A stretch of DNA of 17,927 nucleotides. Origin: Oribacterium sp. (GTDB lineage: Bacteria; Bacillota_A; Clostridia; Lachnospirales; Lachnospiraceae). The stretch's first letter is position 1; each line of letters starts with the position of its first letter. A model generated the notes under the pieces. That model made no database searches, was not told the origin of the DNA, and saw only the letters and a program-made list of their open reading frames with translations. Below are positions 2,818 through 13,099 of this stretch, piece by piece. The translations under genes were made by a program, and so were the position numbers. Location of the stretch: NCBI GenBank assembly GCA_017940955.1, contig JAGAXP010000245.1, positions 1 to 17,927 on the forward strand. Reading direction: 5' to 3'.

Positions 2818-2840
2818 TTGTTGGCAGTCTACTTTTTATA
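2801..2840 (+). terminator. Terminator- or attenuator-like hairpin
   Basis: An 11-bp stem, CTGCTGACAAT (2801-2811) with ATTGTTGGCAG (2817-2827), contains two G-U pairs and a 5-nt loop, followed by CTACTTTTTATA. It spans the stop codon of the 23-codon ORF and lies just before the U32-like gene. The interrupted T-run makes it a moderate terminator at best; an attenuator is possible. Confidence 0.45.
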
Positions 2841-2862
2841 TGCTGGGAGATTTGGGCGTAAT

Positions 2863-3759
2863 ATGAATACAATTCATTATCACCTTCCGGGACTTTTTGA
2901 GTTTTATGAACTATATAAAATATTTCTCCCCCTGTTTAGAAAACATCGGGAATACTTTTATGACTGGTGTGAAATAGGTTCCATATATGGAGCTCCGGGA
3001 GATTGTCTCTGGGGAGGCGGACGCGTCGGTTTTGGTGAAGAGAATCCCGATAATGTAGTTTCACTGATGAAAGAATATCAGGTCTCTGCACGATTAACTT
3101 TTAGTAATTCACTGATAAGCGAAAAGCATCTCGATGACAGGAAATGTAATCGTCTATGTAACCTGTTTGAGAATTGGAATGGTGTTAAAAATGGTGTGAT
3201 CATTCATTCCGATCTGTTGTTGAATTACATTAAGAAAAATTATCAGGGATTTTATTTCGTCTCATCAACTACTAAGGTTTTGACTGACTTTGAGGATTTA
3301 AGGATCGAACTTAACAGAGAAGAATTTCGATATGTAGTTCCTGATTTCAGATTGAATAAAAGGTTTGATGACCTGAATACTCTTACCGAATCACAGAAAC
3401 AAAAAGTTGAATTCTTATGCAATGAATGTTGCTGGTTTGGCTGCTACGACAGAAAAAAATGTTATGAAAACGTCAGTCGAAAAAGTCTCGGAGAAGATTG
3501 TGAAGATCATATCTGTGTTTCGCCGGATGCAGAGTATGGTTATCGTTTCTCGGAGGCCATGAAAAATCCCGGGTTCATAGGTCTTGAAGATATAAAGAAT
3601 GTATATACCCCTAAGGGCTTCTTTGAATTTAAAATAGAAGGCCGAAGTTTGGGCAGTGCATTAATCCTGGAGTTTCTGCTTTACTATATGACGAAACCGG
3701 AGTATCAGCTAAAAGTGCGGGAAGAGATATATCTTGATAGTTCACTGGATCTCTTTTAA
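2863..3759 (+). CDS. U32-peptidase-like cysteine-rich protein
   Basis: A 298-residue soluble protein. The frame is open back to a TTG at 2818, but that start lies inside the hairpin. ATG 2863, with GGGAGA about 12 nt upstream, gives the likely N-terminus MNTIHYHLPG. Residues 36-60 (CEIGSIYGAPGDCLWGGGR), the strand-like VIIHSDLLLNYI (112-123), YFVSSTTKVL (131-140) and VVPDFRLNK (158-166) suggest a TIM-barrel like that of U32 peptidases. A cluster C186-x2-C189-C190-x3-C194-x5-C200, plus C213 and C218, resembles the cysteine positions with which U32 relatives such as UbiU/UbiV bind an Fe-S cluster. Metal binding and activity are inferred. The nearest downstream gene is convergent, so it appears to stand alone. 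It could instead be a protein of unknown function with a similar barrel. Confidence 0.55.
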   Translation: MNTIHYHLPGLFEFYELYKIFLPLFRKHREYFYDWCEIGSIYGAPGDCLWGGGRVGFGEENPDNVVSLMKEYQVSARLTFSNSLISEKHLDDRKCNRLCNLFENWNGVKNGVIIHSDLLLNYIKKNYQGFYFVSSTTKVLTDFEDLRIELNREEFRYVVPDFRLNKRFDDLNTLTESQKQKVEFLCNECCWFGCYDRKKCYENVSRKSLGEDCEDHICVSPDAEYGYRFSEAMKNPGFIGLEDIKNVYTPKGFFEFKIEGRSLGSALILEFLLYYMTKPEYQLKVREEIYLDSSLDLF

Positions 3760-3801: not shown

Positions 3802-5019
3802 CTAAAACTCACATCTTGTGTCATCTCGAAATCCGTCATCATAAACAGTCTGAAGATAAAGCCCCACAAATGGTGCTTTCTGAGTTATAGCCTCACAGGC
3901 TTTCTCATTCCATTTTATCGTATCTTTACGTCCCGAAAAGTAAGCGGAGTTTACTTCTGCAAAGAAATTGCTGAGTTCTTTATCAGGCTCAGCAATGCTC
4001 CTTTTCAGCATCATAGTTGAAGTATCTTTAAAGAATTTTTCGGCATCTTTCGAGTGTTCAAAGTCAAGCTTTTCGGTATGGTAAGAAGCCTTATCTCCCC
4101 TAAATTCTATAACCCCGTACTGACATGGAGCCACCATAAGTGAAGAAGTCGCTATATCTTTAAGTCCCGATTCGCTCTCGGCTATATTCTGTATATGCAT
4201 ATGGCCGCTCAGATTACAGCGCACACCATATTTTTCATAAAGCTCGCAAAGTTTCTCATACTGTCCTATAACAAATCCATCAGTAAACATCGGATTATGC
4301 GGGATCAGGTTCTGATGGCTTACGGCCAGCACCTGTTTCCCGGATTTTTTGGCATCTAAAAGCTGATTCTTTATCCATGTAAGCGTTTCGCCCTTGAGTT
4401 CCCCGGGTGCTTCCTTTGTGTTGACATCCACCATGAGAACTCTTACTCCTGAGTCAAGCTCAGTAATATAACTAAGTGATGAATCATCCCGGGCTAATGC
4501 TTCGTCATAGCCAAAATCTCTGTAGATTTGCGAAAAGTCTTCGGCAGAAACATTATCAACCATGGTATAACCGTCGCCCTCAAAACATGCCGCTCCGCGA
4601 CTGTAAAGATCATGATTTCCGGGTATAACCAGAACTATAGTCCCTGCCTCTTCGATGGATTTCAGTTTTTGAGAAAAACCTTCATGACTTGCCCTTGCGC
4701 CGTTAAAGGTCAGATCTCCGGACAGGATAAGTACCTCCGGGTTTATTTTGATGATTTCATCCACAAAGGCATCAGTTATCTCCTCACAGTACTGCATGGA
4801 TTTTCCGTCGGCATTCTCAATCAGCTCTGTGAAATATTTCCCGTCATCCGTCAGCTCCGGCGCTATATAATGAATGTCCGTTGCCACACATATGGTGGTT
4901 TCGAATGATAATATTTCCTTTTCAGGAGCTGCTGACTGCTCTGGATCTGGACATTTCAAAATAAGAAATAGAATTAGTACGAGTATAAATACCGGCAGTA
5001 TATATTTTAAGTATTTCAT
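3802..5019 (-). CDS. Membrane-anchored calcineurin-like metallophosphoesterase
   Basis: This 405-residue protein starts at ATG 5019, chosen over a frame open to 5088 because GGAG lies 6 nt upstream and the N-terminus then becomes MKYLKYIL followed by a hydrophobic segment (residues 7-22). That segment looks like a signal anchor; the cysteine after it (C23) is preceded by K and is a poor lipobox. The metallophosphoesterase motifs are all present: D48xH50, GD at 101-102, GNHD at 134-137, H235 in SHQN and GHMH at 272-275. These bind two metal ions and hydrolyse phosphomono- or diesters, here probably outside the membrane. The C-terminal 110 residues are an extension with no recognised domain. 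The substrate (nucleotide, cyclic nucleotide or phospholipid headgroup) cannot be read from the sequence. A terminator separates it from the VOC gene upstream. Confidence 0.88.
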   Translation of the reverse strand: MKYLKYILPVFILVLILFLILKCPDPEQSAAPEKEILSFETTICVATDIHYIAPELTDDGKYFTELIENADGKSMQYCEEITDAFVDEIIKINPEVLILSGDLTFNGARASHEGFSQKLKSIEEAGTIVLVIPGNHDLYSRGAACFEGDGYTMVDNVSAEDFSQIYRDFGYDEALARDDSSLSYITELDSGVRVLMVDVNTKEAPGELKGETLTWIKNQLLDAKKSGKQVLAVSHQNLIPHNPMFTDGFVIGQYEKLCELYEKYGVRCNLSGHMHIQNIAESESGLKDIATSSLMVAPCQYGVIEFRGDKASYHTEKLDFEHSKDAEKFFKDTSTMMLKRSIAEPDKELSNFFAEVNSAYFSGRKDTIKWNEKACEAITQKAPFVGLYLQTVYDDGFRDDTRCEF

Positions 5020-5140
5020 GTTAATCTCCATTTCGGCGGCATAAATGAAAGAGTCCAGAAGGTTTGTCTTGGCATCCGTTACATCCATGTTTATATGCTT
5101 CTGTGAACCTGAACCGGGATGTATCCTGAAAAATCAAACA

Positions 5141-5194: not shown

Positions 5195-5578
5195 TCAATA
5201 CTGCTTAAGATGTATAGCGAAACCTGCGATCATCTTATCAAGATAGATGAACTTCATGGTGCCGTCCTCATTGTAGGCGGCACTATCTTTCTTTACTCCC
5301 ATGCCTCTCATTTCAAAAAATTTGGCAGCCTTTGCAACATCGTGAGCACCGATTGCAATATGCCCTTTCTCTCCGGGACCATCCTTTTTCATGATCTCGA
5401 TGAGATCAGAAGCGAAGATAGAGCTGTTACCAACCCGTGGAAGAAAGCCCATCAGAGTGTGGAATTCATCTGCAATTCGTAAAGCATCTTCTTCACCGTC
5501 TGCATTGATACCTACATGAAGGACACAAAGTCCCAATTCCTTGACTGCATCAAAATCCTTTGACATTAAATCTGCCAT
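5195..5578 (-). CDS. VOC (glyoxalase-fold) protein, KDPG-aldolase-tail type
   Basis: A 127-residue single-domain protein with GGGAGG 6 nt before ATG 5578. It has the vicinal-oxygen-chelate pattern: a first half opening LHVGINADGEEDALRIADEF (20-39), GNSSIFASDLIEIMKK (50-65), then KGHIAIGAHDVAKAAKFFE (71-89), GTMKFIYLDKMIAGFAIHL (106-124). H21, H73 and H123 with E61 are possible metal ligands. The sequence resembles the extra domain found at the C-terminus of clostridial 2-dehydro-3-deoxyphosphogluconate (KDPG) aldolases, but here it is a free protein with its own ribosome binding site, promoter and terminator. It may bind or isomerise a 2-oxo sugar acid, which is inference. Other VOC activities such as epimerase or lyase remain possible. 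The N-terminal MADLMSKDFDAVKELG fits the linker region of the fused proteins. Confidence 0.75.
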   Translation of the reverse strand: MADLMSKDFDAVKELGLCVLHVGINADGEEDALRIADEFHTLMGFLPRVGNSSIFASDLIEIMKKDGPGEKGHIAIGAHDVAKAAKFFEMRGMGVKKDSAAYNEDGTMKFIYLDKMIAGFAIHLKQY

Positions 5579-5860: not shown

Positions 5861-7060
5861 TTGCAGATTTCAGTTTTTGATAAAGTGATTAACATAGTTC
5901 TTCCGGAAAAGATGTCTACAGATAATGCAGAAGCCTGCAGCCTGGAAATCGAAAAAGCCCTGAATGAGCATCCGGGATGCTCACTCAGTTTTGATGCGGA
6001 AAAACTCACTTACATTAGCAGCATGGGGTTGAGGGTTTTATTAAAAGCCATTAAAAGTAAAGGCGAAAAAATACCTATAGAAAATGTATCTCAGGATGTG
6101 TATTCCGTTTTTCAGGTTACCGGATTTACAGATCTCATGGATGTGAGATTAAGGCTCCGAAGTCTTTCGGTAGAAGGCTGTGAGATGATCGGTGCCGGAA
6201 GGAGCAGTCATGTATACAGGTTGGATCCGGAGACCATAATCAAATGTTATGAACCGACTATCCCTATAAACAGGATCCGCCATGAAATGGATCTTGCACG
6301 AAATTCCTTTGTTAAAGGAATCCCCACCGCAATACCATTTGATCTCGTTCGGGTGAATGACAGATTCGGAGTAGTATTTGAGCTGATACAGGCGGATACA
6401 GTAGGGCGTTATATTACGGAGCATCCTGAAGAATTTGAAAAGACAGCAGTACAGTTTACCAAACTTTTAAAACAGATTCATGAAACCCATATGGATCCTG
6501 ACAGTGGCTTTGTATCAGAGAAGGAAACCTGGATGGACTGGCTTGAAGGAATGAAGGATTTCTATACAGAGGATGAGTACGATTTCATGAAGTATATGCT
6601 GGATCAGGTTCCTGACCGGGATACTCTGGTGCACTGCGACTATCATGAGAACAATGTACTCTACCAAAACGGAGAACTGATCCTTATAGATATGGCCGAT
6701 ATAGGATACGGACATCCCATATTTGACCTTGCAGGTATGGCATGCCGGGCACATCTTAGTTTCATTCCGGGAAGAAAAGCCCATCATGGACTGACTCCTG
6801 AGGATATGGAACGTTTTTATGAGCTGGAGTTACGCTGTTACTTTGACATTAAAGACGGTGATAATGAAAAATTTAATGCAGTCAAGGATCTGTGTGATGC
6901 CTTCGGATATCTGAGAAGCGGTCTTTTCCCCATGAAACACCAGGGCATATCTCAGGAGCTCAGGGAACTGCATGTGGCTGATGCCCGTAAATATCTTTTA
7001 AATGATGAACGTGAGAAAATAAAAGAGAAGCTTAGGGGACTGAAAGAGTTTTTTGATTGA
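5861..7060 (+). CDS. STAS domain-APH-type small-molecule kinase fusion
   Basis: A 399-residue cytoplasmic protein starting with TTG at 5861; AAGG/AAAGGGTG at 5843-5854 supports it and no nearby ATG fits. Residues 1-95 form a STAS domain (anti-sigma-factor-antagonist fold) with LTYISSMGLRVLLKA (49-63); S53/S54 sit where SpoIIAA-type proteins are phosphorylated. Residues 105-395 are an aminoglycoside/choline-kinase-like phosphotransferase: loop GAGRSSHVYR (111-120), ATP-binding K128, catalytic HCDYHENN (258-265: H258, D260, N265) and metal-binding LIDMAD (275-280). The arrangement resembles the TIGR02172 family of putative kinases. The substrate is probably a small alcohol or sugar; antibiotic resistance is unlikely. 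The STAS part may tie activity to a phosphorylation switch. A nucleotidyltransferase follows 137 bp downstream, so the phosphorylated product may be passed to it. Confidence 0.85.
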   Translation: MQISVFDKVINIVLPEKMSTDNAEACSLEIEKALNEHPGCSLSFDAEKLTYISSMGLRVLLKAIKSKGEKIPIENVSQDVYSVFQVTGFTDLMDVRLRLRSLSVEGCEMIGAGRSSHVYRLDPETIIKCYEPTIPINRIRHEMDLARNSFVKGIPTAIPFDLVRVNDRFGVVFELIQADTVGRYITEHPEEFEKTAVQFTKLLKQIHETHMDPDSGFVSEKETWMDWLEGMKDFYTEDEYDFMKYMLDQVPDRDTLVHCDYHENNVLYQNGELILIDMADIGYGHPIFDLAGMACRAHLSFIPGRKAHHGLTPEDMERFYELELRCYFDIKDGDNEKFNAVKDLCDAFGYLRSGLFPMKHQGISQELRELHVADARKYLLNDEREKIKEKLRGLKEFFD

Positions 7061-7155
7061 AACTATCAGGCTGATGACTATAGATGCAAAAACAGCAGCA
7101 AAACTGATTGAAACTATCGGGCTGACAACTATATATGTGAAACCAGTGGCAAAAG
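7054..7155 (+). repeat. Two tandem copies of a 51-bp unit
   Basis: Copy 1 (7054-7104) and copy 2 (7105-7155) abut exactly and agree at 41 of 51 positions by eye, both starting TGATTGAAACTATC. The first copy contains the stop codon of the STAS-kinase gene (7058-7060). The unit is a multiple of three and one frame stays open through both copies, but no ribosome binding site supports a separate protein. It lies in the spacer before the nucleotidyltransferase gene. Confidence 0.7.
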
Positions 7156-7197
7156 CTGGGATTAAACAGAATAACAAGATGGAAAGGAATAAGAATT

Positions 7198-7704
7198 ATG
7201 ATTATAACTTACGAAGATTTAAGTCGTATCAGAAAAGAAAATCCGGATAAAAAAATAGTGATGCTTAAAGGTACTTTTGACCTTTTTCATATGGGACATC
7301 TCAATATGATCCGTCGTGCAAAGGCCCTGGGGGATATTCTTGTTGTCCTTGTTAAGTGCGATGAGGCAATAAAACTTAAGGGACCGGACAGACCCATCGA
7401 GGATGAGCAACAGCGGGCATCCATAGTTGATGCCATAAGGTATGTGGACTATACCCTGATTGCCGACAGGAAGATAGATGCGGGCATCCCTGATGTTCCG
7501 GAGGAAGACAGGATGCAGTATCTGAGATATTATCAGCTGGTTTCGGATTTAAGGCCTGATGTGCTCATTAAACCATCAAAGAAGCTTCCGGATATCCTCA
7601 TGAAACTCTACAACGAGATAGGGACAGAAATACATGAAGTTGAGGAAACAAAAGGGGTTTCAACAACACTTCTTATAAAGAAGATTCGTGAAAGCCGGAA
7701 TTAA
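7198..7704 (+). CDS. HxGH-motif nucleotidyltransferase (TagD/RfaE C-terminal type)
   Basis: A 168-residue cytoplasmic enzyme with AAAGGA about 9 nt before the ATG. It has the nucleotidyltransferase signature GTFDLFHMGH (25-34; H31 and H34 bind the triphosphate), a KxKGPDRPI stretch (59-67), QQRASIVDAIRYVDY (71-85), RPDVLIKPSKK (119-129) and GVSTTLLIKKI (153-163), the last replacing the ISTT/ISSS-R motif. Order and length fit the glycerol-3-phosphate cytidylyltransferase (TagD) and heptose-phosphate adenylyltransferase (RfaE/HldE C-terminal) group; the PDVLIK motif leans to the second. The enzyme joins CMP or AMP to a phosphorylated alcohol or sugar and releases pyrophosphate. The gene sits between a kinase and an IspF-like gene, so it may act on the kinase product. 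Whether it uses CTP or ATP cannot be decided from the sequence. Confidence 0.85.
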   Translation: MIITYEDLSRIRKENPDKKIVMLKGTFDLFHMGHLNMIRRAKALGDILVVLVKCDEAIKLKGPDRPIEDEQQRASIVDAIRYVDYTLIADRKIDAGIPDVPEEDRMQYLRYYQLVSDLRPDVLIKPSKKLPDILMKLYNEIGTEIHEVEETKGVSTTLLIKKIRESRN

Positions 7705-7845
7705 ATGAAGGGGACCGGATAGACCGGCATATGTATGTCAGAGATAGACGGCAAAAAATACGAGTTTACAGAGTCAGTTTAATCTGCATCAGTATGTCAG
7801 CTATAAAGACTTAATACAGCATTAATAAAAGAGGAGTAAGTATTT

Positions 7846-8310
7846 ATGAAAGTAGCAATCGGACAGGATTCACATCGTTTTGATGACAGTAATTCAGATA
7901 AGCCTCTGATACTTGGAGGTGTTGTTTTTGAAGGGGAACAGCCACTACTTGCCAACAGTGACGGAGATGTGATACTTCATGCAGTCACAAGAGCTATATC
8001 AGGCATCACAACAGTGGATGTGCTTGGACCAAAAACCAAAGAGTTTCTGAAAAACGGAATCACAGACAGCAGGGTATATCTCGAGGAAGGACTTAAGGAT
8101 CTGGAGGGAAACATATCTCACCTGTCAATTTCCATTGAGTGCAAACGCCCACGCATCACTCCCAGGATTCCTGAGATGAGAAGAAGTCTTGCGGCAATGC
8201 TTAAAACCGATGAAAAGAATATAGGCATCACCGCAACAAGCGGAGAAGAATTGACGGAATTCGGCAAAGGAAACGGGATAAATGTTTTCGCGGTAATCAC
8301 CGTTGAATAA
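7846..8310 (+). CDS. Divergent IspF-like (MECDP synthase family) protein
   Basis: A 154-residue protein with GAGGAG 9 nt before the ATG, close to the usual IspF length (about 155-160). The family signatures are present: D8xH10 and H45 (zinc ligands), LILGGV (21-26), ANSDGDVILHAVTRAI (36-51), the RPRITPRIPEMR segment (101-112) and ITATSGEELTEFGKGNGI (128-145). IspF converts CDP-methylerythritol 2-phosphate to the 2,4-cyclodiphosphate and CMP. Here the canonical ALGDIGKHFPDTD segment is replaced by TTVDVLGPKTKEF (55-67), the AHSDGD histidine is N37, and the GRGEGI loop is GKGNGI. Zinc and CDP binding may remain, while substrate recognition has probably changed. It is likely a paralogue, not the housekeeping IspF. 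The nucleotidyltransferase just upstream could supply its CDP-linked substrate. Spacing of 141 bp allows a separate weak promoter (TATAAA at 7802-7807). Confidence 0.75.
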   Translation: MKVAIGQDSHRFDDSNSDKPLILGGVVFEGEQPLLANSDGDVILHAVTRAISGITTVDVLGPKTKEFLKNGITDSRVYLEEGLKDLEGNISHLSISIECKRPRITPRIPEMRRSLAAMLKTDEKNIGITATSGEELTEFGKGNGINVFAVITVE

Positions 8311-8391: not shown

Positions 8392-8934
8392 ATGGTTTTA
8401 TTGGTAAATGCATGTGTACGCGGTGAATCAAGAACAAGGCACCTTGCGGAGAAGCTGCTTGAAAAAATCGGAGGAGACCGGGTGGAGGTCAGGCTGGAGG
8501 ATGTGGTCTTTCCGAAGACAGATGAAGCTTTTTTAAAGAAAAGAGACAGTCTGATAGCCACGCGGCAATTTGGGGATGATTACTTTTCTTTGGCAAAACA
8601 GTTTGCGGCAGCAGAAACTATCGTTATTGCGGCACCTTACTGGGATCTGTCATTCCCCGCTGTGCTTAAGCAGTACATAGAGCATATAAATGTTCTGGGA
8701 ATAACGTTTGAATATACACCTGAGGGGATTCCTAAGGGACTGTGCAAAGCGAAGAAGCTCTACTATGTTATGACTGCAGGTGGAACTTTTGTTCCGGAAG
8801 AATACGGATTCGGATACATAAAAGCTCTTGCCCAGAGTTTCTATGGAATCAAAGAAGTGGAGCTCATAAAAGCAGTGGGGCTTGATATAGTCGGGGCTGA
8901 TGTTGACGCAATAATGAATGAGGCGGAAACATGA
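8392..8934 (+). CDS. Flavodoxin-fold FMN-dependent NAD(P)H oxidoreductase (azoreductase-like)
   Basis: A 180-residue cytoplasmic protein, GGGAGG 6 nt before the ATG. The N-terminal strand-loop VNACVRGESRTRHLAEKLL (5-23) is the FMN phosphate-binding site of the NAD(P)H dehydrogenase (quinone)/AzoR group. APYWDLSFPAVLKQYIEHI (81-99) matches the conserved PMxNFxxPxxLKxY region, followed by GITFEYTPEG (103-112) and TAGG (128-131) at the isoalloxazine site. Such enzymes reduce quinones, azo or nitro compounds by two electrons. Its stop codon overlaps the ATGATG of the peptidase gene, indicating translational coupling. Residues 162-166 (VGLDI) and the C-terminal helix complete the fold. Substrate unknown; a link to the preceding kinase and IspF-like genes is only positional. 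Confidence 0.85.
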   Translation: MVLLVNACVRGESRTRHLAEKLLEKIGGDRVEVRLEDVVFPKTDEAFLKKRDSLIATRQFGDDYFSLAKQFAAAETIVIAAPYWDLSFPAVLKQYIEHINVLGITFEYTPEGIPKGLCKAKKLYYVMTAGGTFVPEEYGFGYIKALAQSFYGIKEVELIKAVGLDIVGADVDAIMNEAET

Positions 8935-11900
8935 TGTTAAAAAGCAGACATCAAACAATTCATATTATTAACAGGAAAATTATAGGATTTATCATGGTGA
9001 TATCGGTTATTGTCACCATGGCGGGCTGTGAGGCAACCTCTGTGCCTGAGGCAAATCCTGTTTCTGAGACTGTGTCCGAAGAAACAACCGAAGCGGAAAA
9101 GGAAAACAATGAGACTGTTACGGGAAGCGAAGAAACTGCCCCGGAGACTGAAGAAGTAAAAAGACAGACTGTAGAGCAGGATGAGAATGGGTACCCTTAT
9201 CTTTCGGAAGAAGTGGATGAGGAATATCAAAAGGATCTTTTCGTTGAAGGCAGCAGCTATCTCGATTATACGGTGGAAAGGACAGGTTCTGTAAAGTCTC
9301 TTAGGGCTGAAACTGCCGTCCTTAAACATAATACCAGCGGAGCCACAGTATACCTTATAAGGAATGATGATAAGGAACTGGGCTTTGATATAAGCTACAG
9401 GGTTCCGCAGCTGAATAATGCCGACATACCGCACATTTTCGAGCATTCCATACTTGCGGCTTCGGAAAAATATCCGGCTACGGATCTTTTCTTTGATATG
9501 GCAAATACTACCTACAATACGTACATCAATGCTTTTACATTCAACACCTGTACTTCATACCTTTTCAGTACATTAAGTCAGGGTCAGTTTATAAAGCTTC
9601 TGGATGGCTATATGAGCTGCATGACCTCTCCAAAGATACTTGAAAATGAAAACTTCTTTAAACGTGAAGCACTAAGATATCAGTTGTATAACATTGATGA
9701 CCCCATAACACTCAACGGAATAGTTTTTTCGGAAGACATGGGAGGACTGACAGACGGATCAGAAGTCTCCATATATGCAATAAATGAAAGCCTTTATCCG
9801 GATTCGATAATGAGTAATGTCGTGGGTAGATGCTATACGGATCTTGAGAACTTAAACTATAGTAATCTGCAGGAAGTATATAAGACATATTACAGATTTG
9901 ATAATTCCCTGATCATTCTTTACGGAGACATGGATTATAAGGCTGTGCTTGAATATCTGGATTCGGAATATCTTACAAAGTATCCTGAAAAAGAAGAACC
10001 TGTAAATATCCCGGAAATAGCTGTTTCTGAAGGTTATGTAGAAACCGAATATGACATTCCGGTTTATGAGGATGATACAATCGGCTATCAGAACAGGGTC
10101 ACGTATGCTTTTGATCTTTCCGGATTTACTCCTGAAGAAGAACGTGAACTGCTTTTGTTCGAGGCTCTCATGATGGATTCCTCTTCAACTTTTATGAAGG
10201 ACGTAAAAGAAACAGGGCTTCAATGGAAGGTGGTTCAAGGGTTATCTCCATACAGCGCCTGGTATCCTACTTATCAGGTGATACTTAACACTCAGGGAGA
10301 CGACATTGATAAGGATGTAATAAAGAAAATTTTTGATGACAGTCTTTCTGAAGTTTCACGAAATGGATTTCCCGAGGAAATTTATGATGTTGTAATAAAA
10401 AGAAGAGAACTGCAGGATGCCTTTGAAAGAGAGAATGTAACCTTCATAGATACTCTTTCCGAAGCAATTGCCGTACCCTGGACAAGAACCGGAGATCCAA
10501 TGGTCATGGAAACAGATGAAGCGGTCTTTGAAAAATTCATACAGGATTCGGGGCAGACCAGAGTGAAGGAGCTTGCAAAGAAGCTTATGGAGGTGGACCG
10601 TAAAGCTCTGGTTTACTGTAAGGAAAAACCTGGGCTTGCGGAAAAGAAAGAACAGGAAATAGAGGATTATTTAAAGAACTTAAAAGCTGATATGTCGGAA
10701 TCTGAGCTCCTTAAACTGATAGATGATACTAAAGATTTTGATGAATGGAGTGAGGAAAACATTACTAACAAAAATACAGTGATAAGTGTATCCGATCTGC
10801 CTGAGCCGGTAATATATGATACTCCGGAGATTACAAATCTCGGAGAATGTACGGTGGCAGCTGTACCGATTGATCAGAAAGATATCTATGACGTTAGTTT
10901 CCTTTTTGACACTTCAACTCTTAGGCAGGAAGAACTCTATGACCTTGTACTATATTTAAACCTTTTGGGCAATACGTCTACAAAAGTAAGATCTCAGGAG
11001 GAATTTGACAGAGAAAGCAGCTTAAATGGAAGCATAAGTACAGACCTGACCGGAGAAGGTTTTAAAGAACCTTTCAACAGATTGTATCTGGAGATATCAC
11101 TGGGAGGATTTACAAAGGATTTCAGTAATAATCTCAGTCTGATGGAGGAGATGCTGACAAAATCAGATTACAAAAAAGATGAAGTGCTGGAAATAGTTCG
11201 ATTACTTAAAAACAGCTATGATCCTTCCAATATAAGTTCTGATAATGCAGCATTAATCCTTTCCAGGGCTCTTGAAGGTGTAAGTACAGGGTTTGAGTAC
11301 TACATCATAAGAGGCATGCATGAATATCTTACCGGTCAGGAAACTGCACTCTCAGAAGATGATGCAGCGATCGAAGCATTGGCAGAAAAGATGGAAAACG
11401 TCCGTGATAAGATATGGCATAGTGACCATATGATCATGGGGATAGCCGCTTCACCGGAGGGTATTTCTGAAATAAAAAGTGAAGGTAAGGAACTTATAGA
11501 CAGAATCCCATCCGGTATAGTTGAAGATTACCGGGAGTCCTATGATTATGGAATCCCTTCCGAAAAGCGGATAGGCATCATTGTAAGCAACCCTTTGCAG
11601 TCATTACGTGGCGGGATTATTTTGGATGAGGCTGAGTTCAGGGGCAGATACCTTCCTTTTTTTGAGGCGCTTAACGACAGATACATTATTCCTGAAATGA
11701 GATACAGGAATGGTGCATATGGTGCGAATCTGACTTATATTATCAGTAAAAAACAGATTGGTATGGGTACAATAAACGATCCTAATTGCAGAACAACCAT
11801 GGAGGCTGTGGATGAGACTCCGGCAATACTCAGAGAAATGGATCTCACGGAGGAGGATCTTGATACATACACAGTTTCCGCATACCAAAAGATCGCGGTC

Positions 11901-12140
11901 CCGATGGGTGATATCAGTCGTGCGGATTCCGGTATCTATAATTATTTTGCGGGAATAGATCCGGACAATTTACTGTATATATCCGAAGATATGAAAAAGG
12001 CTGCAATTGAAGATAAAACGGTGGCGGCGGACATAATTGAAAAAATGATTAATGACGGTCACTTCGTGATGGCTGGAAGCAAGTCAAAGCTTGAAGAAGA
12101 TAAAGATTGCTTTGACATGGTGTTTGCATTGAGTGAATGA
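8931..12140 (+). CDS. M16C (PreP/Cym1-like) zinc peptidase lipoprotein
   Basis: A 1069-residue protein. ATG 8931 overlaps the previous stop; GAGGCGG lies 5 nt upstream. Residues 13-32 form a signal peptide ending in the lipobox MAGC (30-33), so C33 should be lipidated and the enzyme anchored outside the membrane. An E/T-rich linker (36-80) follows. The inverted zinc motif HIFEH (168-172) and the third ligand E268 in GIVFSEDMG lie 96 residues apart, as in PreP. TYNTYINAFTFNTCTSY (194-210) matches the PreP substrate-chamber region. The rest (about 300-1069) contains the further M16 domains that form a closed chamber. The family degrades unfolded peptides; mitochondrial PreP destroys presequences. 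An exported, lipid-linked version would probably degrade extracellular or cell-surface peptides. Length exceeds the usual ~970 residues mainly because of the signal and linker. Catalytic residues look intact. Confidence 0.9.
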   Translation: MMLKSRHQTIHIINRKIIGFIMVISVIVTMAGCEATSVPEANPVSETVSEETTEAEKENNETVTGSEETAPETEEVKRQTVEQDENGYPYLSEEVDEEYQKDLFVEGSSYLDYTVERTGSVKSLRAETAVLKHNTSGATVYLIRNDDKELGFDISYRVPQLNNADIPHIFEHSILAASEKYPATDLFFDMANTTYNTYINAFTFNTCTSYLFSTLSQGQFIKLLDGYMSCMTSPKILENENFFKREALRYQLYNIDDPITLNGIVFSEDMGGLTDGSEVSIYAINESLYPDSIMSNVVGRCYTDLENLNYSNLQEVYKTYYRFDNSLIILYGDMDYKAVLEYLDSEYLTKYPEKEEPVNIPEIAVSEGYVETEYDIPVYEDDTIGYQNRVTYAFDLSGFTPEEERELLLFEALMMDSSSTFMKDVKETGLQWKVVQGLSPYSAWYPTYQVILNTQGDDIDKDVIKKIFDDSLSEVSRNGFPEEIYDVVIKRRELQDAFERENVTFIDTLSEAIAVPWTRTGDPMVMETDEAVFEKFIQDSGQTRVKELAKKLMEVDRKALVYCKEKPGLAEKKEQEIEDYLKNLKADMSESELLKLIDDTKDFDEWSEENITNKNTVISVSDLPEPVIYDTPEITNLGECTVAAVPIDQKDIYDVSFLFDTSTLRQEELYDLVLYLNLLGNTSTKVRSQEEFDRESSLNGSISTDLTGEGFKEPFNRLYLEISLGGFTKDFSNNLSLMEEMLTKSDYKKDEVLEIVRLLKNSYDPSNISSDNAALILSRALEGVSTGFEYYIIRGMHEYLTGQETALSEDDAAIEALAEKMENVRDKIWHSDHMIMGIAASPEGISEIKSEGKELIDRIPSGIVEDYRESYDYGIPSEKRIGIIVSNPLQSLRGGIILDEAEFRGRYLPFFEALNDRYIIPEMRYRNGAYGANLTYIISKKQIGMGTINDPNCRTTMEAVDETPAILREMDLTEEDLDTYTVSAYQKIAVPMGDISRADSGIYNYFAGIDPDNLLYISEDMKKAAIEDKTVAADIIEKMINDGHFVMAGSKSKLEEDKDCFDMVFALSE

Positions 12141-12150
12141 CAGAGCTTAG

Positions 12151-12200
12151 TGATCCACCGGGGACGGTTCTCGCCGGCGAGAACCGTCCCCGGTGGATCA
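12151..12200. repeat. 50-bp perfect palindrome (REP-like element)
   Basis: Every base from 12151 to 12175 is complementary to its partner in 12200-12176, with no central loop. The half-site reads TGATCCACCGGGGACGGTTC then TCGCC. It is much richer in GC than the flanking DNA and lies 10 bp after the peptidase stop. GGGGACGGTTC-type palindromes are, as I recall, scattered in clostridial genomes near IS200/REP-associated transposases; no transposase is present here. No T-run follows on either strand, so it is not a standard terminator, though the hairpin would protect the 3' end of the peptidase mRNA. Confidence 0.85.
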
Positions 12201-12205
12201 GGTCG

Positions 12206-12232
12206 CTGACATACCGGTCAGACATTTATAAT
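12206..12232 (+). promoter_or_regulatory. Possible promoter of the rhodanese lipoprotein gene
   Basis: A consensus TATAAT at 12227-12232 lies about 48 bp before the rhodanese start codon. CTGACA at 12206-12211 is the best -35, but the 15-nt spacer is short. It begins just after the palindrome, so the lipoprotein gene may be transcribed separately from the peptidase. Confidence 0.35.
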
Positions 12233-12280
12233 AGGATTAGGAATTCTAACGTTTATGATAAAACATGGTGGAGGGATTTT

Positions 12281-13099
12281 ATGAGAAGGTCGTTCAGAAA
12301 GTGTTTGATGGCAATTGCGGGGAGTGTCTTGATTATGCTTTCGGGATGTGAATCAAGGGACCGGATAATGGACGGCGACGGTATGATTCAGACGTTTTAT
12401 TATACAAATATAACCCAGGATGAAGCGAAACGAATGATGGAACAGGATGACGGTCATGTTATCGTTGATGTGAGGAGACAGGATGAGTATGACGAAGGGC
12501 ATATTCCCGGAGCCATACTTATACCAAATGAAAATATAGAAAACGATCCTCCGGAAGAATTACCCGATCCTGAGCAGATCATTCTCGTTTACTGCCGCAG
12601 TGGACGGAGAAGTAAAGAGGCTTCACAGAAACTTGCTGATATGGGATATAGGAATGTTTATGAGTTTGGAGGAATCATCGACTGGACAGGTGAGACTGAG
12701 AAAAGTGAAGAAACAGCTGAAACAACTCAGGAAACAGAAGATGAAACAACAGAGGAAACAACCGTAGGAGATACGGAAATGATTGATAAGACTGCAACTT
12801 TAAGGTTTGAATCATTTGACGGAGGCGGGCCGGAATTTAATGTGATCATAGAGGACGAAAGCATTGTATCCTATTCTGCTGTAAGAAAGTATGCCAGTGA
12901 AGATCATGAAATGATGACAGGTGCCGGATATGATGAGGTATTCACATTTACCGGTATAAAACCCGGTGAAACAGATATGCGTATAGAGGCACGCTCACCC
13001 ATAGCAGATAATTTTGATGCAAACTATAAGGTAGTCGTCAGTGAAGATCAGAGCGTGAAAATAGAAGAGCTTTCGGTAAGTGAGCCGCCTTTAATGTAA
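12281..13099 (+). CDS. Rhodanese-domain lipoprotein with chagasin-like tail
   Basis: A 272-residue protein. The frame is open back to 12137, but that part reads through the 50-bp palindrome; ATG 12281 has GGAGGG 5 nt upstream and begins a proper signal peptide, MRRSFRKCLMAIAGSVLIML then SGC, with lipid-anchor C23. Residues 44-136 are a rhodanese domain: VIVDVRRQDEYDEGHIPGAI (60-79), active-site loop CRSGRRS (105-111, nucleophile C105) and the end VYEFGGIIDW (126-135). A T/E-rich spacer (137-168) leads to a beta-rich domain (170-262). There, MTGAGYDEVFTFTGIKPGET (212-231) resembles the second conserved segment of chagasin-type (I42) cysteine-protease inhibitors, but the NPTTG motif is absent, so this may only be an Ig-like fold. 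Role: extracytoplasmic sulfur transfer or thiol handling is possible. The gene converges with the HAD gene, leaving 6 bp. Confidence 0.8.
   Translation: MRRSFRKCLMAIAGSVLIMLSGCESRDRIMDGDGMIQTFYYTNITQDEAKRMMEQDDGHVIVDVRRQDEYDEGHIPGAILIPNENIENDPPEELPDPEQIILVYCRSGRRSKEASQKLADMGYRNVYEFGGIIDWTGETEKSEETAETTQETEDETTEETTVGDTEMIDKTATLRFESFDGGGPEFNVIIEDESIVSYSAVRKYASEDHEMMTGAGYDEVFTFTGIKPGETDMRIEARSPIADNFDANYKVVVSEDQSVKIEELSVSEPPLM

What the first reader, a model, noticed from the sequence alone, without database searches (positions are those of the whole stretch)
5861..8310. Kinase - nucleotidyltransferase - IspF-like cassette: a possible parallel to the IspD/E/F steps
Three adjacent same-strand genes encode an APH-type kinase, an HxGH nucleotidyltransferase and an IspF homologue. 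In the MEP pathway, IspD adds CMP, IspE phosphorylates and IspF cyclises with CMP release. Here the first two activities come from unrelated families, and the cyclase-like protein has an altered substrate segment. The set could make a new cyclic diphosphate or process another CDP-linked polyol. I know of no described pathway with this combination, but I cannot search.
Basis: inference. Interest (0 to 1): 0.72.

Follow-up and report, generated by a model that had tools for sequence, protein, structure and literature searches.

The report
Kinase, nucleotidyltransferase, IspF-like cyclase cassette
A rare but conserved set of three bacterial genes pairs a relative of the isoprenoid enzyme IspF with a kinase and a nucleotidyltransferase of unrelated families, which looks like a second, independently built version of three steps of a well-known pathway, with an unknown product.

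Summary
The three genes are intact and under purifying selection. They co-occur beyond chance, and transferase and IspF are fused in some relatives, much as IspD and IspF can be. The nearest genome held also has a canonical ispF, ispD, ispE, ispG and dxr, so the cassette is an extra there. Its IspF belongs to a type that in many Clostridia sits with ordinary IspE and IspD and is usually the only IspF found. Transferase-linked IspFs form one well-supported clade inside that type. The kinase-linked subclade has three further fixed changes (R49, D58, K65) in the segment that binds the methylerythritol part, while zinc and CDP sites are mostly kept. In a sister form of the cassette a histidine phosphatase takes the kinase's place; one incomplete draft genome with it has DXS, IspG and IspH but no IspD or IspE hit, which is suggestive, not proof. 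I think the cassette works by IspD/E/F-type logic on a CDP-linked polyol; whether the product is MEcPP or a new cyclic diphosphate is open. CTP use, substrate and product are untested. The paper searches made here listed no description of it.

The parts
5861..7060 (+). STAS-APH kinase gene (399 aa): STAS domain about residues 7-99, APH kinase domain about 110-294 with HCDYHENN and IDMAD motifs
   Evidence: AlphaFold2 model pLDDT 93; top solved folds are APH-type enzymes; K128, H258, D260, N265, D277 invariant in 40 rows
7198..7704 (+). HxGH nucleotidyltransferase gene (168 aa)
   Evidence: model pLDDT 92; best solved folds HldC, then CTP:phosphocholine, glycerol-3-phosphate and other cytidylyltransferases, with pantothenate synthetases among them
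7288..7299 (+). codons for the H-x-G-H motif (residues 31-34, HMGH)
   Evidence: H31, G33, H34 invariant in 9 aligned transferases; H31 and H34 invariant in 44
7846..8310 (+). IspF-like cyclase gene (154 aa); Zn ligands D8, H10, H45, phosphate-holding S38 and CDP/Mg-site residues P102, A130, T131, S132, E134 present
7984..8049 (+). residues 47-68, the stretch that matches the methylerythritol-binding region; carries R49, D58, K65
   Evidence: role of the loop from PMC2151065 (passages seen)
8392..8934 (+). flavodoxin-fold oxidoreductase gene, next to the cassette in L002 and L004 too; link to the cassette not shown

Best explanation
The cassette is a CDP-polyol cyclase route built on IspD/E/F-type logic. 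Shown: the three genes are a recurring unit, the cyclase kept the zinc site and most of the CDP site of IspF, and it branches from within IspFs that lie beside IspE and IspD. Inferred: the HxGH transferase couples CMP from CTP to a polyol phosphate (the IspD role), the STAS-APH kinase puts a second phosphate on it (the IspE role), possibly under STAS-based control, and the IspF variant closes a cyclic diphosphate and releases CMP. Because R49, D58 and K65 are fixed in the polyol-binding stretch, the polyol is probably not handled exactly as methylerythritol is.
For: Co-occurrence of the three. Fusion of transferase and IspF in P0036 (both Pfam domains) and P0314, which by eye begins inside a transferase C-terminus. 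One clade of transferase-linked IspFs, 77 rows, support 100/99, nested among operon IspFs. Zn residues kept in 98-100% and CDP-site residues mostly kept; the three sites fixed differently (kinase-linked at least 95%, operon group at least 90%) all lie in residues 47-68 (3 of 3, hypergeometric p 0.004); 22 of 22 rows whose linkage to another cassette gene is known have N37, R49, T56, D58, K65. Fewer nonsynonymous changes than neutral. A full set of canonical upstream genes in G001 (ispF, ispD, ispE, ispG, DXR), so the cassette need not do the housekeeping job.
Against: No biochemical data. The nucleotide is not settled: the best NCBIfam and structural matches of the transferase are of ADP-heptose type (RfaE domain II 90.3 bits, HldC) with cytidylyltransferases next, and the equivalog models rfaE domain II and TagD are matched far below their cut-offs. 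Two genomes have a phosphatase, not a kinase, beside transferase and IspF, so a kinase step is not constant. The IspF still passes the ispF cut-off. The residue that stacks on cytosine (E. coli K104) is R in only half of the kinase-linked rows. Labels of those IspF rows whose linkage is unknown were set by a motif that overlaps site 58, which makes that site partly circular; R49 and K65 lie outside the motif. The stretch 47-68 was chosen after the differences had been seen.
Confidence: 0.45

Rival explanations
1. Same logic, but the product is MEcPP itself: the cassette is an alternative or stress-regulated supply of MEcPP, with the HxGH transferase standing in for IspD and the kinase for IspE. 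In the histidine-phosphatase form it may be the only IspD.
For: The cyclase is mostly 57-64% identical to Clostridia IspFs that sit with IspE and IspD and that were the single IspF match in the genomes tested, apart from G802. G792 has DXS and IspH (771.6 and 253.5 bits, over their cut-offs), IspG and one IspF next to the transferase, but no hit for IspD or IspE over the whole assembly. Of 46 genomes of its family, my pick, 6 have IspF: four have IspD about 0.9 kb away on the same contig, and the two without are the two with the transferase; the one PF01128 hit of G1039 is a D-ribitol-5-phosphate cytidylyltransferase (192.3 bits, cut-off 166; below the ispD cut-off) in a LicD/glycosyltransferase cluster.
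Against: G792 is incomplete: 45 of 74 markers found in the 1.04 Mb held, a ribosomal block and frr/uppS missing, 43 of 50 markers outside that block and the pathway genes; its missing DXR may be the same gap. Only 11 tRNA genes for 7 amino acids were found in it. IspE was not searched over all of G1039, where 35 of 74 markers were found in the 0.91 Mb held. No kinase is next to the phosphatase form. The kinase-linked cyclases have the charge changes R49, D58, K65.
Confidence: 0.3
2. The kinase and transferase make an NDP-linked compound by LicA/LicC or heptose-type logic, and the IspF variant performs another CMP-releasing cyclisation, for example forming a simple cyclic phosphate from a CDP-polyol that carries no second phosphate.
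For: Transferase closest to RfaE domain II / HldC and to choline-, ethanolamine- or glycerol-3-phosphate-type cytidylyltransferases; the phosphatase form pairs it with a CobC-like histidine phosphatase; changed substrate stretch.
Against: The serine that holds the attacking 2-phosphate (E. coli S35, window S38) is kept in all 46 rows of the kinase-linked group, which suggests that the second phosphate is still there.
Confidence: 0.15
3. The genes are neighbours without a shared pathway, carried together by horizontal transfer.
For: Sporadic distribution: 1 of 397 family genomes and 1 of 398 phylum genomes have the transferase at the thresholds used.
Against: Repeated co-occurrence on diverged contigs, fusions, overlap of transferase and IspF genes in L005, one IspF clade tied to the transferase.
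Confidence: 0.05

Closest known systems
MEP pathway enzymes IspD, IspE, IspF (and IspD-IspF fusion proteins)
   Same: Third gene is an IspF homologue over the TIGR00151 cut-off; a nucleotidyltransferase is next to or fused to it, as IspD can be.
   Different: Transferase is of the HxGH family, not PF01128; kinase is of the APH family, with no ispE model match; substrate stretch of the cyclase changed.
ispF-ispE-ispD operons of Clostridia with the same IspF type
   Same: Direct relatives of the cyclase; an IspE cluster in 73 and an IspD cluster in 71 of 82 loci; in L024 the neighbours pass the ispE and ispD cut-offs.
   Different: They keep ordinary IspE and IspD and have C, G or S at site 56 in about 99%, N at 49 and 58, D at 65 in all of 67 rows (60 of the 67 have both neighbours, 3 IspE only, 1 IspD only, 3 neither).
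HldE domain II / HldC, TagD, CTP:phosphocholine cytidylyltransferases
   Same: Fold and HxGH motif of the transferase.
   Different: Scores far below the cut-offs (90.3 of 181.5 for rfaE domain II; 53.9 of 165.4 for TagD).
TIGR02172 / APH-like kinases
   Same: Kinase domain matches TIGR02172 with 111.9 bits and APH with 52.2.
   Different: Below the TIGR02172 cut-off of 228.2; carries an N-terminal STAS domain, which some relatives linked to the transferase or IspF lack (P0215, P0217, P0220).

Membership tests
IspF (2-C-methyl-D-erythritol 2,4-cyclodiphosphate synthase) | Score over the TIGR00151 cut-off | tested here: met
   123.2 bits, cut-off 116.45
IspF (2-C-methyl-D-erythritol 2,4-cyclodiphosphate synthase) | Zn ligands and CDP/Mg site | tested here: met
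   D8, H10, H45, P102, T131, E134 kept; T133 of E. coli is S132, K104 is R103
IspF (2-C-methyl-D-erythritol 2,4-cyclodiphosphate synthase) | Methylerythritol-binding stretch as in canonical or operon IspFs | tested here: not met
   R49, D58, K65 against N, N, D in 67 operon-group rows
IspF (2-C-methyl-D-erythritol 2,4-cyclodiphosphate synthase) | Makes MEcPP from CDP-ME 2-phosphate | not testable with these tools
   needs an assay
IspD (PF01128) | IspD domain in the transferase | tested here: not met
   only PF01467 found at E 0.01
IspE (GHMP kinase) | IspE family model match in the kinase | tested here: not met
   APH, STAS and weak kinase matches; no ispE model match at E 0.01
CTP-dependent HxGH cytidylyltransferases | Uses CTP | not testable with these tools
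   matches both ADP- and CDP-type enzymes
HldE domain II / RfaE II | TIGR02199 cut-off | tested here: not met
   90.3 bits, cut-off 181.5
TIGR02172 kinases | TIGR02172 cut-off | tested here: not met
   111.9 bits, cut-off 228.2
APH phosphotransferase superfamily | PF01636 cut-off and catalytic H-x-D-x4-N | tested here: met
   52.2 bits, cut-off 23.2; H258, D260, N265 invariant in 40 rows

The most novel reading that the evidence does not exclude
An IspD/E/F segment assembled twice in evolution: an HxGH nucleotidyltransferase took over the IspD step beside a MEP-pathway IspF (in some gut Clostridia perhaps as the only IspD), and a later branch added an APH kinase, often STAS-controlled, and re-shaped the cyclase to make a cyclic diphosphate other than MEcPP.
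Probability: 0.33. Interest if true: 0.88.

Novelty: new variant of a known kind. Interest (0 to 1): 0.7.

Why it matters
[quoted passage not shown] A natural replacement of IspD or IspE would break that rule, matter for antibiotics and herbicides that target these steps, and give parts for pathway engineering. If the product is not MEcPP, the cassette would point to an unknown cyclic diphosphate in bacteria.

Tried and rejected
A single-copy ispF: rejected for the nearest genome held, G001, which has two (240.6 and 116.5 bits); the window's own assembly is not held. A cassette-only altered IspF: rejected as stated, since the same type lies beside IspE and IspD elsewhere. Absence of IspD, IspE and DXR from G792 as proof: rejected after the marker check. 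The IspD-like hit of G1039 as an ordinary IspD: rejected. Plasmid carriage: only matches under 60% identity among plasmid records, 27 for the transferase and 12 for the IspF. Known RNA element in the window: none over the gathering scores. Compositional outlier: GC of the three genes is 0.42-0.44, the window's 0.42. Literature: the listings (at most 15 titles each, of up to 2,073 papers holding the terms) showed no paper on such a cassette; I saw passages only, of PMC10663253, PMC13001223 and PMC2151065. A motif hunt for other kinases and for N-terminal Rossmann proteins (a stand-in for DXR) in the draft genomes gave nothing I could use; one APH-like protein without a STAS domain was seen in G1039 (L298).
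Full report
What is there. Three same-strand genes lie at 5861-7060, 7198-7704 and 7846-8310. The first is an APH-type kinase with an N-terminal STAS domain, the second an HxGH nucleotidyltransferase (PF01467), the third an IspF homologue that passes the TIGR00151 cut-off (123.2 against 116.45 bits). The same trio is in L002 (G001; kinase gene cut by the locus end), L003 and L004, the last two being Oribacterium records. Differences between the window and L003/L004, in codons: transferase 6 synonymous and 0 nonsynonymous against L003, 9 and 1 against L004; IspF 7 and 1, 5 and 2; kinase 10 and 11, 12 and 8, where 3.3 to 3.9 nonsynonymous per synonymous would be neutral.

Is the set conserved? 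The transferase is rare: 1 of 397 family genomes at E 1e-30 and 1 of 398 phylum genomes at E 1e-25, the same genome G001 both times. In protein collections relatives of all three were found, one named Selenomonas (P0007). The protein search gives no context, so I used equal longest-contig lengths: 17 of 46 transferase clusters share a length with an IspF cluster (0.32 on average in 100 shifted comparisons, maximum 3) and 10 with a kinase cluster (0.18, maximum 2); five lengths (2916, 5771, 7411, 8458 and 9493 bases) occur in all three lists; 24 of the 46 transferase clusters have no partner by this test. This used 46, 46 and 50 of the 120 rows listed in each search, and some kinase rows were added because they matched. 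Two clusters look like transferase-IspF fusions: P0036 has both Pfam domains, with the IspF part cut short, and P0314 by eye starts inside a transferase C-terminus and runs into a whole IspF (Pfam finds only the IspF part).

Where the IspF comes from. A scan of species genomes gave 80 loci with a relative. An IspE cluster occurs in 73 and an IspD cluster in 71 of the 82 loci then held, typically directly downstream of the IspF. I named the clusters by eye; the family models confirm them in L006/G793, L024/G802 and L077/G813. Two archaeal loci printed (L077, L080) carry an IspD-IspF fusion. Of 25 genomes tested, 23 have a single IspF match. The exceptions are G791, which carries the window's cassette plus a canonical IspF, and G802, whose second match is a degenerate IspF without the zinc ligands and below the cut-off. 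So the unusual sequence type is mostly an ordinary MEP-pathway IspF of these bacteria. An ML tree of 151 IspFs puts the transferase-linked ones in one clade (77 rows, 100/99) inside the operon type; the kinase-linked group of 46 rows is one side of a branch (94/83), nested in the rest of the clade, where both rows with known phosphatase context lie (the bootstrap had not settled). The other protein rows were labelled by a motif at about residues 56-61, and the tree includes those columns.

What changed in the cyclase. Metal ligands D8, H10, H45 and the phosphate-holding S38 are kept; of the CDP/Mg site P102, A130, T131 and E134 are kept in 89-100% of the kinase-linked group, S replaces E. coli T133, and the stacking lysine is R in half of the rows. 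PMC2151065 (passages seen) describes a rigid CDP-zinc pocket and a flexible loop that positions the methylerythritol part. Sites conserved at 95% or more in the kinase-linked group and 90% or more in the operon group, but different, are R49 (N), D58 (N) and K65 (D); all three lie in residues 47-68 (hypergeometric p 0.004, with 8 of 44 such sites in that stretch). At looser levels 6 of 14 differing sites lie there (p 0.005). The stretch was set after the differences had been seen, so the p-values are indicative. Among 22 rows of known linkage, 22 have N37, R49, T56, D58 and K65. The phosphatase-type group keeps N49 and N58 but shares T56. The operon group of 67 rows has both neighbours in 60, IspE only in 3, IspD only in 1 and neither in 3.

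The other two enzymes. The transferase model (pLDDT 92) is closest to HldC and then to CTP:phosphocholine, glycerol-3-phosphate and other cytidylyltransferases, with pantothenate synthetases among them, so the nucleotide is not decided. The C-terminal GxSTT-type motif resembles cytidylyltransferases by my recollection, which no call tested. The kinase model (pLDDT 93) is closest to APH enzymes with modest TM-scores, which says little about its substrate. The STAS domain is absent in some linked relatives, so it is a regulatory extra if anything.

The phosphatase form. In G792 (L005) and G1039 (L173) a CobC-like histidine phosphatase, the transferase and the IspF are adjacent; phosphatase and transferase overlap in both, transferase and IspF in L005. 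Only 2 of 292 family genomes have this transferase at E 1e-30. Of 46 family genomes, my pick, 6 have IspF; four of these have IspD about 0.9 kb away, the other two are G792 and G1039. G792 has no IspD, IspE or DXR hit over the whole assembly but has IspG, DXS and IspH. G1039's only IspD-family hit is a D-ribitol-5-phosphate cytidylyltransferase. Against this: G792 misses many markers (45 of 74 found in the part held; 43 of 50 outside the ribosomal block and the pathway genes) and shows only 11 tRNA genes; the missing markers include frr and uppS, which flank dxr in E. coli. Only 0.91 of about 1.3 Mb of G1039 was held, with 35 of 74 markers, and in it DXS was found but not IspE, DXR, IspG or IspH. 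So loss of IspD and IspE is suggested, not shown.

The host of the window's cassette. The window's own assembly is not held. G001 carries an ispD (197.4 bits, cut-off 181.3) and a canonical ispF (224.8, cut-off 116.45), ispE, ispG and DXR; G791 shows the same ispF, ispD, ispE and ispG hits. So the cassette is an accessory route there. The upstream flank is rearranged between strains.

Conclusion. The mechanism I favour is a CDP-polyol route ending in a cyclic diphosphate, with the product open between MEcPP and a new compound. No step of the chemistry is shown.

Noticed in passing
window 7705-7845 against L004: The gap between the transferase and IspF genes is 141 bases in the window and L003 but 19 in L004, a length difference of about 122 bases; L002 has the same short spacing.
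   Followed up: no
window 7061-7197: The gap between kinase and transferase holds an imperfect tandem repeat of about 50 bases, seen by eye in the sequence.
   Followed up: no
window 3802-5088 and 5195-5578: A metallophosphoesterase gene that lies directly upstream of and in line with the cassette in L003 and L004 is inverted in the window, with a small gene between that has only a weak glyoxalase match.
   Followed up: partly
window 8931-13099 against L002 and L004: Most of the M16 protease gene is missing in L002 and L004, where a 194-residue frame matches its first 44 residues and the last part of the rhodanese/chagasin gene.
   Followed up: no
L077, L080 (archaeal drafts), L065, L068, L070: The same IspF type occurs in archaeal drafts (Woesearchaeota and others; IspD-IspF fusions with IspE in L077 and L080), a Neomarinimicrobiota draft and Ruthia-type symbionts.
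   Followed up: partly
L109 (G802) 180-638: A second, degenerate IspF homologue that lacks the zinc ligands and scores below the ispF cut-off (106 of 116.45), in a genome with an ispF-ispE-ispD operon.
   Followed up: partly
family of G792: 40 of 46 sampled genomes gave no IspF match and few had a strong IspD, so this lineage may largely lack the MEP pathway.
   Followed up: partly
G816 (Oribacterium RUI013): Two further STAS-APH relatives (41% and 35% identical) lie elsewhere in the genome of L003.
   Followed up: no
window 2818-3759: A 313-residue protein with no Pfam or NCBIfam match at E 0.01.
   Followed up: no
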